Source of the DNA: Brachyspira pilosicoli | GTDB lineage: Bacteria; Spirochaetota; Brachyspiria; Brachyspirales; Brachyspiraceae | Assembly: GCF_008016535.1 (NCBI RefSeq) | Contig: NZ_SAXY01000058.1 | Location: 1 to 64,000 of the forward strand | Length of the DNA: 64,000 bases | Direction of reading: 5' to 3' | Shown here: positions 195-53,961 of the stretch, in pieces | Layout of the letters: every line of letters begins with the position of its first letter | How positions within the stretch are numbered: position 1 is the first letter of the stretch | The notes under the pieces: generated by a model | What the model was told of the DNA's origin: nothing | Database searches by the model: none | The model's input: only the letters and a program-made list of their open reading frames with translations | Program-made: the position numbers and the translations under genes

Positions 195-725
195 TTACTT
201 CTTTGAAACTATAAATTGATTTGTCAAGTACTTTTGAAACAAGTCTATTATATCAAGAACTTTTGACATATCAGGGTGCTTAATTCCTGCTCCTCTATAA
301 AATGAAGATATTAAATCTAATTTATTTATTAATACATAATATAAAAACTTATTATCTAATTTATTTACATCTATTGAAGTGGCTATTCTATTAAAACCTG
401 TAATAAATTTACCTTTATAATATTGAACTATAGCATTACCGCCTTCTGGGATGCATACTATTTCACCATTGTTTAAACTATTTGAAACTAATTTTTCTAA
501 AGTAAATAAATTACTAATATTTGTTGTAAGTATTTTTACATCACCATTCTCAACTGCTAATTGTTTTAATTCATCTGCTGTAAAATATCTATATTTAAAA
601 GTAGTTTTTTGTTTATCTTTATCAACTGAATTAAATTTTTTATCCCATATTGTTACAGACCATAAAGGTACATACTCCACGCCGTTGGGGCAGTGCTTTT
701 TTAAAAGTTCTTTTATGGTGTTCAT
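195..725 (-). pseudogene. hsdS: Truncated type I restriction specificity subunit (HsdS)
   Basis: HsdS recognises the DNA target of type I restriction-modification complexes and normally has two target-recognition domains in 380-450 residues. This frame has 176 residues: the usual opening (LKKHCPNGVEYVPL), one recognition domain with EIVCIPEGGNAIVQYYKGK, and the segment FYRGAGIKHPDMSKVLDI just before the first conserved spacer. The expected IPIPPLEVQ-type helix is missing; the last 20 residues look out of frame. No hsdM or hsdR is adjacent. An IS transposase fragment lies immediately beyond its 3' end, so insertion or deletion there probably removed the second half. Likely non-functional, although a half-subunit that dimerises cannot be excluded. 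Confidence 0.75.
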
Positions 726-2573: not shown

Positions 2574-2601
2574 TTGACATAATTATTATTTATGTTAAAA
2601 T
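2574..2601 (+). promoter_or_regulatory. Promoter of the heptamer-repeat leader
   Basis: TTGACA at 2574-2579, 16-nt spacer, TAAAAT at 2596-2601. The next ATG (2609) begins only 7 nt after the -10 box, so a transcript would be leaderless or nearly so. The first 15 nt (TTGACATAATTATTA) are identical to the promoter at 53961-53933 that drives the other heptamer array. Confidence 0.65.
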
Positions 2602-2608
2602 AATTTAT

Positions 2609-2932
2609 ATGAAATCTGTTTATTTAATTAGGTTTATAGACAGTCTACAGTCTACAGTCTACAGTCTACAGTCTACAGTCTACAGTCTACAGTCTACAGT
2701 CTACAGTAGTATAATTTTAAATATATTTAACCAAATTAAAAAATATTACTCATTAATATTATATAACATTATTTTTGTATTGCATAAAAAATCAAATAAT
2801 TGTTTTTCTGACAAAATTAAAACATACATCAAAAAATTAATACTATTATATTTATTAAAAAATAATCATTATAAAAATTCAATCAAAAAAATAAGGAGAA
2901 ATATATATGGCTGGCTTTATGGATTTTATTAA
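2609..2932 (+). CDS. Leaderless upstream ORF that reads through the heptamer array (candidate phase-variable leader)
   Basis: 107 codons. It opens MKSVYLIRFID, then three copies of the heptapeptide SLQSTVY encoded by the 7-bp repeat, then 78 codons of Lys/Ile/Tyr-rich sequence that stop at 2932, 26 nt inside the next gene (start 2907). There is no ribosome-binding site; the ATG sits 7 nt after the -10 box. The other two frames leaving the array stop within four codons, so the long open run is notable in such AT-rich DNA. The opening resembles MKTDILIQIIVD at 53925, in the same frame relative to its array. No function is known for the peptide; I infer a role in coupling translation to the following gene. 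It could also be chance. Confidence 0.4.
   Translation: MKSVYLIRFIDSLQSTVYSLQSTVYSLQSTVYSSIILNIFNQIKKYYSLILYNIIFVLHKKSNNCFSDKIKTYIKKLILLYLLKNNHYKNSIKKIRRNIYGWLYGFY
2641..2707 (+). repeat. Heptanucleotide tandem array (CAGTCTA), about 9.5 copies
   Basis: Nine perfect CAGTCTA units followed by CAGTA. The ends are small imperfect palindromes (TAGACAGTCTA on the left, CTACAGTAG on the right). The same array, same flanks, reversed, is at 53840-53893. It starts about 32 nt after the leaderless ATG. A change of one unit shifts the frame by one. Confidence 0.97.
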
Positions 2933-3266
2933 TGATGCTGTTAATTCAGCTATTAATAGTAATGATAAGGATAGTTTTTTTAAAGTGGCATGCCTTTTAG
3001 TATATGCTAATAATGATACTGCTTCAAAAACAGATATTGAGTTATCAACAGAGCTTTATAATACAATATTTTTTAATGAGCCTATGATATCTATTCAAAT
3101 GAATAAAAAACTAAAGAAGATATATCAGGATATTTGTGATAATGGATATGATCCTGATGATGTTATAGAAGATATTTTAAATGGAAGAATAGATAGAAAT
3201 AAACTTAAAATATTTTTTGTATGTGCTTGTATTTTAGGATGTATGCCTAATGATTATGGAGAATAG
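2907..3266 (+). CDS. Small acidic helical protein, family not recognised
   Basis: 119 residues with a strong ribosome-binding site (AAGGAG, 6-7 nt before the ATG). No signal peptide or clear membrane span. It opens MAGFMDFINDAVNSAINS and looks largely helical. It holds five cysteines, three of them clustered near the end (VCACILGC). Its size and alternating acidic and hydrophobic helices are faintly TerB-like, but I would not assign that. The next gene, a radical SAM/SPASM enzyme, begins 6 nt downstream, so the two are surely co-transcribed. The small protein may be the enzyme's partner or substrate. The start lies inside the end of a repeat-bearing upstream ORF. Confidence 0.75.
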   Translation: MAGFMDFINDAVNSAINSNDKDSFFKVACLLVYANNDTASKTDIELSTELYNTIFFNEPMISIQMNKKLKKIYQDICDNGYDPDDVIEDILNGRIDRNKLKIFFVCACILGCMPNDYGE

Positions 3267-3271
3267 TAAAA

Positions 3272-4129
3272 ATGAAAAAAATCAAAATATTTTTAGATGC
3301 ATTAATTAGTAATATAGAAAAATATAATCCAGATTTATACAGAAGATTAGTTTACGATGGGTATAAAAAATATTCATATATAGTAAATTATATTAAATAT
3401 AAAGATAAATATTTTTTTCATGGAGTTTGTGTAGAGATATCAACATTTTGTAATAGGAAATGTCATTATTGTCCGAATAAAGACTATGAAACTCCTAAAA
3501 AATTTATGGATTGGGATACGTTTAAATTAGTTGTAAGTCGTTTACAAGATATTAATTTTACAGGATTATTTCAATATAATTTTTTCAATGAACCTTTGTT
3601 TGATGATAGGTTAGCATTATTTGCTGAATATGTTTCTAAGAATTTACCAAAATGTATACAAGTTCTTGTTAGTAATGGGGATATATTAAATGTTGATAAA
3701 GCAATTGAATTGTCAAATGCGGGTATTGATAAATTTGTAATAACAGTGCATGATGATAATCCAACAAACAATTTAAAAAGATTACAACCTGTAAAAAATA
3801 TATTAAAGCATAAAATGAAATTACAGACTTCACAAGATTTATATCTCAATAATAGAGGTGGAGCAGTAGATGTTTCTAATGAAACTAGAAAAACAACTTA
3901 TAAGACTTGTCAAGATATTAAAAATTTAAATATTATGATAAATGGTGATGTAGTATTGTGTTGTCAAGATTATTTTAGAAAATATGTTATGGGAAATATT
4001 AAGGAAAAAGATATATTATATATTTGGAATTCATATAAAGAAATCAGAGAAGAGCTATTAAAAAACAATAAAGCAAGATTATATATTTGTAAAATATGTT
4101 TAGAACAAGATAAAGATGAGGAAAATTAA
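3272..4129 (+). CDS. Radical SAM/SPASM domain protein
   Basis: 285 residues. The radical SAM cluster motif CX3CX2C is Cys60, Cys64 and Cys67 (FCNRKCHYCPN) and would bind the [4Fe-4S] cluster that cleaves S-adenosylmethionine. A later cysteine set (TCQDIKN, VVLCCQDYF, YICKICLEQ) fits a SPASM domain carrying auxiliary clusters, as in enzymes that mature peptides or proteins. FNEPLFDDRL matches the family's N-E-P segment. Start ATG overlaps the preceding gene's GGAGA region; the genes are 5 nt apart. Substrate unknown. The upstream 119-residue protein is the only obvious candidate partner. No transporter or protease genes are adjacent, which argues against a classical RiPP cluster. Confidence 0.88.
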   Translation: MKKIKIFLDALISNIEKYNPDLYRRLVYDGYKKYSYIVNYIKYKDKYFFHGVCVEISTFCNRKCHYCPNKDYETPKKFMDWDTFKLVVSRLQDINFTGLFQYNFFNEPLFDDRLALFAEYVSKNLPKCIQVLVSNGDILNVDKAIELSNAGIDKFVITVHDDNPTNNLKRLQPVKNILKHKMKLQTSQDLYLNNRGGAVDVSNETRKTTYKTCQDIKNLNIMINGDVVLCCQDYFRKYVMGNIKEKDILYIWNSYKEIREELLKNNKARLYICKICLEQDKDEEN

Positions 4130-34234: not shown

Positions 34235-34262
34235 TTGACAAAAATTATTTATTTGCTATCAT
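34235..34262 (+). promoter_or_regulatory. Promoter of the pentamer-repeat leader
   Basis: TTGACA (34235-34240), 16-nt spacer, TATCAT (34257-34262). The first ATG (34269) is 6 nt past the -10 box, again implying a leaderless mRNA. Confidence 0.55.
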
Positions 34263-34268
34263 ATACTA

Positions 34269-34391
34269 ATGATGAACTATATGAACTATATATTTAACAT
34301 CACGCATCGCATCGCATCGCATCGCATCGCATCGCATCGCATCGCATCGCATCGCATCGCATCGCATCGCATCGCATCGCATCGCATATAA
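34269..34391 (+). CDS. Leaderless upstream ORF through the pentamer array (currently stops after the array)
   Basis: Opens MMNYMNYIFNIT, then repeats of HRIAS coded by the 5-bp units, and stops at TAA 34389-34391. With one unit more (or two fewer) the frame would leave the array as AYKLNSVSINTLSYLNK and run 58 codons without a stop to TAA 34561-34563, overlapping the start of the lipoprotein gene at 34557. The third frame stops at once. No ribosome-binding site. Translation is inferred from the pattern shared with the cassettes at 2574 and 53961. Confidence 0.4.
   Translation: MMNYMNYIFNITHRIASHRIASHRIASHRIASHRIASHRI
34303..34387 (+). repeat. Pentanucleotide tandem array (CGCAT), 17 copies
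   Basis: Seventeen perfect CGCAT units, 85 bp. GC-rich compared with its flanks. Perfect identity of all units suggests active slippage. The unit is not a multiple of three. Confidence 0.98.
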
Positions 34392-34556
34392 ACTAAATTC
34401 TGTTTCTATTAATACATTATCATATTTAAATAAAATATCGGCAATATTCTCATTGCATTTGTTTTTATCAATTTTTGGCGGCAATAAACATTGTCAGTTA
34501 ATCATTCATAATAGCATCATAAAAACATTATTAATATCATCATTAAGGAGATTTCT

Positions 34557-34949
34557 ATGTTAAATAATTTGAATAAAAAAATTATTAAAATTGTTGTCAG
34601 CATTTTTTTGTTAGCTTTAATTTCAATAAGCTGTGAATCGAAACAAGATCCTACAAAACAAGATCCTATTACTTTCAGACCTATGGATTTAGTTGGCACA
34701 TGGTATAGTACAGATGGAAAAGCTGATAGTTTTACTATAACATACGAAGGCTATATGACTTTAAATGATGGGTCTCAATCTAAAACCATTCCAATAGAAA
34801 ACTGGAGATATACTATGAGTAATGAAGTTACTTCCTATGAGCTGTTTTCGGGTATAGTACGTTTTTATTTCAAAAGTTCTAGTGAATGTGAGGTGATTAT
34901 TAGTACTGCAAGCGGAGAATCACGAGGGTATTTCAGAAAAGCAGTATAA
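34557..34949 (+). CDS. Small lipoprotein, lipocalin-like pattern
   Basis: 130 residues with a signal ending at the lipobox LISISC, a short linker, then a beta-rich domain beginning MDLVGTWYSTDGKADSFTI and repeating short strand-turn units to RGYFRKAV. The GTW opening and strand pattern are like small calycin-type lipoproteins, common in Brachyspira, but no function is known. Strong AAGGAG site. Preceded by the pentamer-repeat leader, so its expression may be switched. Confidence 0.8.
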   Translation: MLNNLNKKIIKIVVSIFLLALISISCESKQDPTKQDPITFRPMDLVGTWYSTDGKADSFTITYEGYMTLNDGSQSKTIPIENWRYTMSNEVTSYELFSGIVRFYFKSSSECEVIISTASGESRGYFRKAV

Positions 34950-52726: not shown

Positions 52727-53833
52727 TTAAAAACTAATAGCACTAATTACTACATTTATTATTAAACTTTTATTATTATCAGTAGCTAAAGTTATTTGTA
52801 GAGGTGCAGTAGAGAATAAATTAAATCCTATGCCGCCTCCTACCATGTATAACATCTCACCATCATTAATACTTTGATATTCATATTTTCCATATCCAAT
52901 ATTTCCAAAACCCACTAAATATAAATCATTCCAACCAGATGGCAAGAATCTCATATATAATTTATATTCTAAATGTAGAAATGTTAAAAAGCTATAAGGC
53001 TCTACATATTTTTCAGCATTGTTTAATGGAAGCATCTGCAATATGCATAAATATTTCTCTCCAATAGAATAATTCTTTTTAGAGTCATTAAAATAAGCAC
53101 TATAACTAATATACGGCATAATGCCCAATTCTCCCCAATAGTGGAAAAATGAATAAGGCATAGATGCATATATTCCATAAGAATATTCTTTTCCATTTGG
53201 TATAATATTAAAATCTATTCCTGTATTAAATTTTAATTTATTAATAGAATTATCATAAATTAAAGCAGATACATCTACACTCTGCTGAAGCTTGAAAATA
53301 TTATTTATTTCTTTAGTGTTGCTGTTTAAATCAAGTATTTTACCAACGTTAAGGTTATATGTGAGAGAAACATTTTCAAACATATATCCTGTTGAAAAAT
53401 TACCATAAGATTCTAAGGTATCAAAAGTATATTTATCAGTATATGGAATTAATCCTTGTTTATATTTTAGATTTATAAAAAACCTATCGTATCTATATTC
53501 CATGCCAGCATATGCAAAAAGTCCAAAAGAGTATGAGCCATATTCATAGCTTATACCTATACGTGGAATATAGAGATATGAAGCATTTTTTCTATATAGA
53601 TATCCAATATCAATAAAGAATGGAAAGCCTGTAACATGGTAAGTCATATAAAAACTTGATCTTTTGAATGTGTCTTGTGCTTTTAAATTTAAAGAACTAA
53701 TAGATATAAATAAACAGAAAATTATTAGGAATAATTTAGAAGTTTTTATATTAAGCCTTAATGAAATTTGACTAAAAAAAAATTGATGCAACACCAAAAG
53801 AAAAATGGTTAATTGTAAAGTGTAATTTTCCAA
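52727..53833 (-). CDS. Putative outer-membrane beta-barrel protein lacking a normal start codon
   Basis: The mature part is a barrel-like protein of about 315 residues with frequent aromatic strands (YGSYSFGLFAYAGMEYRYD) and Gly-rich end (YMVGGGIGFNLFS). Where a signal peptide begins (KTSKLFLIIFCLFISISS) and 6 nt after an AAGG site, the codon is ATA (53749-53747), not ATG. The frame is open upstream through 28 codons to the heptamer array, with only TTG (53833) or GTG as starts. One more array unit would put it in frame with the leaderless ATG at 53925. First gene of a seven-gene envelope cluster. Confidence 0.75.
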   Translation of the reverse strand: MENYTLQLTIFLLVLHQFFFSQISLRLNIKTSKLFLIIFCLFISISSLNLKAQDTFKRSSFYMTYHVTGFPFFIDIGYLYRKNASYLYIPRIGISYEYGSYSFGLFAYAGMEYRYDRFFINLKYKQGLIPYTDKYTFDTLESYGNFSTGYMFENVSLTYNLNVGKILDLNSNTKEINNIFKLQQSVDVSALIYDNSINKLKFNTGIDFNIIPNGKEYSYGIYASMPYSFFHYWGELGIMPYISYSAYFNDSKKNYSIGEKYLCILQMLPLNNAEKYVEPYSFLTFLHLEYKLYMRFLPSGWNDLYLVGFGNIGYGKYEYQSINDGEMLYMVGGGIGFNLFSTAPLQITLATDNNKSLIINVVISAISF

Positions 53834-53925
53834 GACTACTGTAGACTGTAGACTGTAGACTGTAGACTGTAGACTGTAGACTGTAGACTGTCTACAATGA
53901 TTTGTATCAAAATATCAGTTTTCAT
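53809..53925 (-). CDS. Leaderless upstream ORF through the heptamer array (currently out of frame with the barrel gene)
   Basis: Opens MKTDILIQIIVD, then SLQSTVY repeats, then SWKITLYN and stop (53811-53809). The ATG is 7 nt after the -10 box, no ribosome-binding site. The distance to the barrel frame is 92 nt, which is two more than a multiple of three; adding one 7-nt unit, or removing two, joins the frames. Opening residues and frame match the ORF at 2609. Confidence 0.4.
53840..53893 (-). repeat. Heptanucleotide tandem array (TGTAGAC on the plus strand), 7 copies plus partial
   Basis: Seven perfect units from 53840 to 53888 plus a partial unit. Reverse complement of the array at 2641-2707, including both end palindromes (CTACTGTAG and TAGACTGTCTA on the plus strand). 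Confidence 0.97.
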
Positions 53926-53932
53926 AGGCACT

Positions 53933-53961
53933 AATATAACATAATTTAATAATTATGTCAA
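53933..53961 (-). promoter_or_regulatory. Promoter of the second heptamer leader and envelope cluster
   Basis: TTGACA (53961-53956), 17-nt spacer, TATATT (53938-53933), then AGTGCCT and ATG. First 15 bases identical to the promoter at 2574. Confidence 0.7.

What the first reader, a model, noticed from the sequence alone, without database searches (positions are those of the whole stretch)
2574..2932. Promoter, leaderless ORF and tandem array: a recurring cassette that looks like a phase-variation switch
Three loci (here, 34235-34563, 53961-53749) share one plan: sigma70 promoter, ATG 6-7 nt after the -10 box, 10-12 codons, a perfect tandem array of 7 or 5 bp, then a gene. Unit sizes are not multiples of three, so each gain or loss shifts the frame. 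Here two exit frames stop within four codons; the third, used now, stays open 78 codons and ends 26 nt inside the gene at 2907. A run this long is unlikely in DNA this AT-rich. I infer that array length decides whether ribosomes reach the start of the small protein and its radical SAM partner. Known phase-variable genes mostly carry repeats inside the gene or in the promoter; a leaderless switch ORF placed before the gene is, to my knowledge, not described.
Basis: partly seen in the sequence, partly recalled or inferred. Interest (0 to 1): 0.85.

Follow-up and report, generated by a model that had tools for sequence, protein, structure and literature searches.

The report
Repeat-counting frame switch before surface genes
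A gut spirochaete (Brachyspira) carries many copies of a small DNA module in which the number of short repeats sets the reading frame of a tiny leader ORF, so that ribosomes either run up to the next gene or stop short, which probably turns surface-related genes on and off at random.

Summary
The window lies in a Brachyspira genome. All three loci have the described plan, and it recurs across the genus: ACAGTCT arrays occur in 16 of 26 genomes, CGCAT arrays in 17 of 26. ACAGTCT loci with a readable promoter start the leader at an ATG 6-11 nt after the -10 box; CGCAT leaders are leaderless or start 26-44 nt downstream, often behind a Shine-Dalgarno (SD) site. In 25 of 33 downstream-gene families one exit frame stays open from array to gene (4.5 expected, p~3e-25; 15 of 22 against 2.9, p~2e-13, after merging homologous cassettes). 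The other two frames usually close at once. Near-identical flanks carry 5.7, 10.7 or 11.4 units. The target's relative has one unit fewer (OFF), with compensating indels that keep its ON frame. Similar cassettes precede unrelated genes, many surface- or glycan-related. Best reading: slipped-strand phase variation through a leader ORF; in OFF frames the untranslated leader probably lets transcription end early. The principle is known from Streptococcus gallolyticus pil1/pil3, so 'not described' is too strong. New here: leaderless initiation, translation open up to the gene start, no terminator at the target, and a genus-wide portable family. Within-strain variation and expression are untested.

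The parts
2574..2601 (+). Locus A promoter, TTGACA-16-TAAAAT
   Evidence: Consensus match 11 of 12; same position in the orthologue L070. Transcription start not mapped.
2609..2932 (+). Locus A leaderless leader ORF in its current, open (ON) frame, 107 aa, overlapping the gene at 2907 by 26 nt
   Evidence: Exit frames end 225, 2 and 7 nt after the array; ON frame kept in L070 despite +2/+1 indels
2640..2707 (+). Locus A perfect tandem array, (ACAGTCT)9.7
   Evidence: 8.7 units in the orthologue L070
2773..2785 (+). Array-linked motif TTTTGTATTGCAT in the spacer
   Evidence: TTGCA motif in 19 of 33 family spacers; 4 of 5 matches of the longer motif in 733 kb are at array loci. Function unknown.
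2893..2898 (+). Shine-Dalgarno AAGGAG of the controlled gene
   Evidence: Read from sequence, scored
2907..3266 (+). Controlled gene, 119-aa protein of unknown family (177 aa in the relative)
3272..4129 (+). Radical SAM/SPASM protein, next gene of the presumed operon
   Evidence: PF04055 and PF13186
34235..34262 (+). Locus B promoter, TTGACA-16-TATCAT
34269..34391 (+). Locus B leader ORF in its current, closed (OFF) frame, 40 aa; one more unit would open it to 176 nt after the array
34303..34387 (+). Locus B array, (CGCAT)17
34557..34949 (+). Locus B controlled gene, 130-aa probable lipoprotein
   Evidence: ORF read from sequence; no Pfam match; lipoprotein-like signal by eye
53933..53961 (-). 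Locus C promoter, TTGACA-17-TATATT
53836..53925 (-). Locus C leader ORF in its current, closed (OFF) frame, 29 aa; one more unit fuses it in frame to the gene
53838..53891 (-). Locus C array, (ACAGTCT)7.7
52727..53749 (-). Locus C controlled reading frame, probably exported protein without a clear start codon of its own
   Evidence: The ON frame runs to a stop 1111 nt after the array; no Pfam or NCBIfam match

Best explanation
These are simple-sequence contingency switches built on a leader ORF. A strong promoter makes a transcript that starts at or within a few nt of an ATG. Ribosomes start there (leaderless; SD-led in many CGCAT cassettes), translate a few codons and the repeat array, and leave it in a frame set by the copy number. 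Two of the three copy-number classes stop within a few codons of the array and leave about 70-250 nt of untranslated leader, where transcription most likely ends early (Rho-dependent at most loci, local hairpins at some). In the third class ribosomes run on to, or just over, the gene's start codon, shield the leader and keep the message; where the gene's SD is weak and the stop overlaps the start (ATGA) they probably also reinitiate. At a few loci the ON frame is the gene's own frame. Gain or loss of one unit by strand slippage switches the state. Shown by sequence: the plan, its recurrence, the rule of one open and two closed frames, copy-number differences between near-identical loci, the kept ON frame in one close pair, and the presence of similar cassettes before unrelated genes. 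Inferred: translation of the leaderless ORF, the termination step, and on/off expression.
For: Frame statistics; ON stop reaching the gene or lying within 20 nt of it in 45 of 55 loci, often as ATGA; constant array orientation, with stop codons only on the antisense strand of ACAGTCT; ATG 6-11 nt after the -10 at ACAGTCT loci; ordinary-length leaderless ORFs elsewhere in the genus; 5.7/10.7/11.4 units in flanks with 226 of 228 identity and 22.6 against 11.2 units; target 9.7 (ON) against 8.7 (OFF) units in L070; many cargo genes of surface or glycan type. For termination rather than coupling alone: SD sites strong and no more paired than in controls (p 0.40), spacers with C over G in 30 of 32 families against 0.83 in controls, rho present, and precedents PMC3894217 and PMC7446863.
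Against: No expression, 5'-end or footprint data. Copy-number change was seen only between genomes, not within a strain. Eight of 33 family representatives have no frame open to the gene. Only 8 of 55 loci are ON (p 0.002 against one third). The C-over-G bias may partly follow from avoidance of TAG and TGA. One array locus (L285) has no leader ATG. The single-pair test of ON-frame conservation is weak (0.08).
Confidence: 0.82

Rival explanations
1. The same switch, but the ON state works purely by translational coupling: ribosomes that end the leader at the gene start reinitiate there, and transcription is not affected by the frame.
For: ON stops cluster at the start codon, with ATGA or short overlaps in many loci; fam02, fam20, L040 and L072 have weak SD sites.
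Against: The target and most others have a strong SD of their own, no more paired than in control genes; several ON frames end 24-80 nt before the gene.
Confidence: 0.3
2. A pil1-type intrinsic attenuator: the ON leader ribosome disrupts a premature terminator hairpin between array and gene.
For: Proven in S. gallolyticus. Good hairpin-plus-U candidates in fam00, fam06, fam07 and fam16; hairpins enriched overall, p 0.0008.
Against: Hairpin plus U-run is not enriched overall (p 0.14) and none is found at the target.
Confidence: 0.25
3. Classical in-gene repeats: the ON frame is the true N-terminus of the controlled gene, as in Haemophilus lic genes.
For: At about seven loci (for example locus C, L061, L042) the ON frame is the gene's own frame.
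Against: At most loci, including the target, the ON frame differs from the gene frame, ends at or just inside it, and the gene has its own SD.
Confidence: 0.1
4. The arrays are DNA or RNA binding sites, or spacing elements, whose length tunes transcription, and the reading frames are incidental.
For: Repeat arrays near promoters act this way elsewhere (general knowledge), and TAACTGA heptamers have been proposed as binding sites (PMC4679880).
Against: It does not explain the frame rule, the ATG position or the kept ON frame; different units (ACAGTCT, CGCAT, CTCACAG, AGTTC) share the same plan.
Confidence: 0.05

Closest known systems
Streptococcus gallolyticus pil1 and pil3 leader-peptide switch (Danne et al. 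2014, PMC3894217)
   Same: Promoter, small leader ORF, pentamer array whose copy number sets the frame, short leader OFF and long leader ON, surface genes downstream.
   Different: There the leader has an SD, and ON needs only to reach a stem-loop terminator. Here ACAGTCT leaders are leaderless, the ON frame usually stays open up to or across the gene start, the target has no terminator hairpin, and the module is a genus-wide family with several repeat units.
In-gene repeat phase variation (Haemophilus, Neisseria, Campylobacter contingency loci)
   Same: Slipped-strand repeats that shift a reading frame, with glycan and surface genes as targets.
   Different: The array lies in a separate upstream ORF at most loci; only a minority are in frame with the gene.
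Rho-dependent termination in the C. difficile flagellar switch leader (PMC7446863)
   Same: The OFF state acts after transcription initiation, through Rho in a 5' leader.
   Different: There the switch is DNA inversion, not repeat number; no leader ORF frame is involved as far as the abstract tells.
TAACTGA heptamer arrays of Beggiatoaceae and others (PMC4679880)
   Same: Heptamer direct repeats upstream of start codons.

Membership tests
Slipped-strand simple-sequence contingency locus | Perfect array with a unit not divisible by three | tested here: met
   Units of 7 and 5 bp
Slipped-strand simple-sequence contingency locus | Copy number differs between close relatives with otherwise near-identical flanks | tested here: met
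   L043/L044/L074, L206/L234 and target/L070
Slipped-strand simple-sequence contingency locus | Copy number changes within one strain or culture | not testable with these tools
   One genome per species is held; no reads
Slipped-strand simple-sequence contingency locus | Expression follows copy number | not testable with these tools
   No expression data
pil1-type leader-peptide attenuation switch | Leader ORF containing the array, with frame-dependent length | tested here: met
pil1-type leader-peptide attenuation switch | Premature intrinsic terminator between the leader stop and the gene | tested here: not met
   None at the target; candidates at some other families only
pil1-type leader-peptide attenuation switch | Leader translated from an SD-led ATG | tested here: not met
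   ATG 7 nt after the -10 box at the target; pil1 has a GGAG RBS. Many CGCAT cassettes are SD-led.
Leaderless translation | Transcript begins at or within a few nt of the start codon | tested here: inconclusive
   -10 to ATG distance of 6-11 nt at ACAGTCT loci; 5' end not mapped
Rho-dependent polarity | Rho present and untranslated C-over-G RNA in the OFF state | tested here: inconclusive
   rho found in the genome; C over G in 30 of 32 spacers; termination itself not tested

The most novel reading that the evidence does not exclude
Brachyspira carries a portable regulatory cassette (promoter, leaderless or SD-led switch ORF, repeat array, spacer with an array-linked TTTYGGYATTGCA motif) that has been copied in front of unrelated genes and forms a genus-wide set of frame-counting transcription switches, with the conserved motif as a further, undescribed control element.
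Probability: 0.45. Interest if true: 0.82.

Novelty: new variant of a known kind. Interest (0 to 1): 0.74.

Why it matters
It predicts, from sequence alone (copy number modulo 3), which Brachyspira surface and glycan genes switch at random. Brachyspira are gut spirochaetes of pigs, birds and people, and the searches made here found no earlier account of repeat-mediated phase variation in them (open-access papers only). It also suggests that a leader-ORF frame switch known from two streptococcal pilus loci is used on a large scale elsewhere, with leaderless starts.

Tried and rejected
Rfam: no match in 10 loci. A universal intrinsic terminator: not supported at the target or overall. SD sequestration as the OFF mechanism: no support. 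The same heptamer outside Brachyspira: the loci read there lack the cassette. Plasmid and viral collections gave no second strain of the target. A tie to the radical SAM gene: most relatives whose start could be read have no array upstream. One family of homologous spacers as the cause of the frame statistic: rejected by merging.

Full report
What is there. The three loci are as described. Locus A (2574-2932), B (34235-34563) and C (53961-53749, minus strand) each have a near-consensus sigma-70 promoter, an ATG 6-7 nt after the -10 box, about 11 codons and a perfect array of 9.7, 17 and 7.7 units. The long frame of A ends at 2932, 26 nt inside the gene at 2907; the other two frames end 2 and 7 nt after the array. 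A is in the open (ON) phase; B and C are OFF and would each open with one added unit.

Recurrence. The window is contig C68 of a 2.76 Mb genome whose same-genus handles match named Brachyspira contigs in length (B. hampsonii, B. innocens, B. pilosicoli, Brachyspira sp. G79). ACAGTCT arrays occur in 16 of 26 genomes of the genus and CGCAT arrays in 17 of 26. At ACAGTCT loci with a readable promoter the ATG lies 6-11 nt after the -10 box (L038, where the automatic call failed, gives 8 when read by eye with a TAGTAT -10). CGCAT loci split into leaderless ones and ones with the ATG about 26-44 nt downstream, several behind a visible SD. A unit-blind scan of 733 kb found eight array loci; seven have a leader ORF entering the array, including loci with CTCACAG, ACAGC and AGTTC units; L285 (AAACTCT) does not.

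More than chance. For 64 loci in 33 downstream-gene families, gene starts were called from SD, length and start codon, without using the leader frame. One exit frame is open from array to gene in 25 family representatives; dinucleotide shuffles give 4.5 (p 3e-25). The strict rule, one open and two closed within 25 nt, is met in 19 against 1.7 (p 7e-22). Some cassettes are homologous across gene families, so families were merged: 15 of 22 against 2.9 (p 2.4e-13), while the antisense control gives 4 against 2.6. The ON stop reaches the gene or lies within 20 nt of it in 45 of 55 loci, several times exactly as ATGA.

Copy-number change. L043, L044 and L074 share 226 of 228 downstream positions but have 5.7, 10.7 and 11.4 units. 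L206 and L234 share 120 of 120 upstream positions and have 22.6 against 11.2 units. The target's relative L070 has the same promoter and leader with 8.7 units, which places it OFF; its spacer differs by 23 substitutions and two indels (2 and 1 nt), and the ON frame is kept. In a simple simulation that outcome has probability 0.08, so this pair alone is supportive, not proof. All these comparisons are between genomes; change inside one culture could not be tested.

How it may work. Outside the arrays, several ordinary-length ORFs also begin 6-9 nt after a -10 box (L263:12951, L253:13662, L255:13455, window 56354), so leaderless starts appear to be in use and a leaderless leader ORF is plausible. 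Most controlled genes have a strong SD that is no more paired than in control genes (p 0.40), which argues that the gene can be translated without the leader and that control lies in the message. A typical intrinsic terminator is absent at the target but present in some families. Spacers have C over G in 30 of 32 families, against a C/G ratio of 0.83 in control upstream regions, and rho is present. I therefore favour early termination of the untranslated leader in OFF phases, by Rho at most loci, with coupling in addition where the SD is weak. This step is inferred, and the C-over-G bias may partly reflect avoidance of TAG and TGA in the open frame.

Cassette and cargo. Cassettes before unrelated genes share up to 97% identity over about 120 nt of spacer (fam10, fam13, fam26), so the switch has been copied, or its cargo exchanged. 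Locus A shows cargo exchange: in the relative the gene is 177 aa, while here it stops at 119 aa and a radical SAM/SPASM gene starts 5 nt later. Many cargo genes are of surface type: glycosyltransferases, FkbM and other methyltransferases, an MBOAT acyltransferase, OmpA, OMP and BspA-like proteins, probable lipoproteins, a chemoreceptor. Some are not (a glycine reductase subunit, a creatininase).

Compared with what is known. The logic is that of S. gallolyticus pil1 and pil3, where the leader has an SD and ON needs only to cover a terminator. Because the terminator criterion is not met at the target, the target is not filed as a pil1-type attenuator, although its first steps work like one. Literature searches for Brachyspira with phase variation, tandem repeats or leaderless found no earlier description; only open-access papers were searchable.

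Open points. Only 8 of 55 loci are ON (p 0.002 against one third; loci are not all independent). The motif TTTYGGYATTGCA lies in many spacers, and four of its five matches in 733 kb are at array loci; its role is unknown. At locus C the fused ON protein would carry a long stretch before a signal-like sequence, and the gene shows no clear start codon of its own.

Noticed in passing
window 2773-2785; 53799-53787; L263:6320; L276:5387: A motif close to TTTYGGYATTGCA recurs 40-110 nt after the arrays and is nearly confined to array loci (4 of 5 matches in 733 kb). It is sometimes part of a hairpin; its role is unknown.
   Followed up: partly
window 2907-4129; L070: The 119-aa gene is shorter than its relative (177 aa) and is followed 5 nt later by a radical SAM/SPASM gene that the relative lacks: the cargo behind the switch has been rearranged. 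A second, 74% identical radical SAM gene lies on contig C60 of the same genome.
   Followed up: partly
L253:13662, L255:13455, L263:12951, L285:15846, window 56354: Ordinary-length ORFs start 6-9 nt after a consensus -10 box, so leaderless starts may be common in Brachyspira.
   Followed up: partly
55 loci: Only 8 of 55 switches are in the open phase, fewer than the one third expected (p 0.002), which suggests a bias towards OFF in sequenced populations.
   Followed up: no
L279:1096-1179: Two different pentamer arrays (AGTTC and ATTCT) follow each other within one leader ORF before a probable lipoprotein gene.
   Followed up: no
L285:17855-17986: A long AAACTCT array (18.9 units) sits after a consensus promoter but without a leader ATG: an exception to the plan.
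   Followed up: partly
L083-L158 (records outside Brachyspira): The same ACAGTCT heptamer forms arrays in Bacteroidetes, Histophilus somni and others, in other contexts.
   Followed up: partly
window 195-725 (-): Possible type I restriction specificity (HsdS-like) fragment at the left end of the window, judged by eye only.
   Followed up: no
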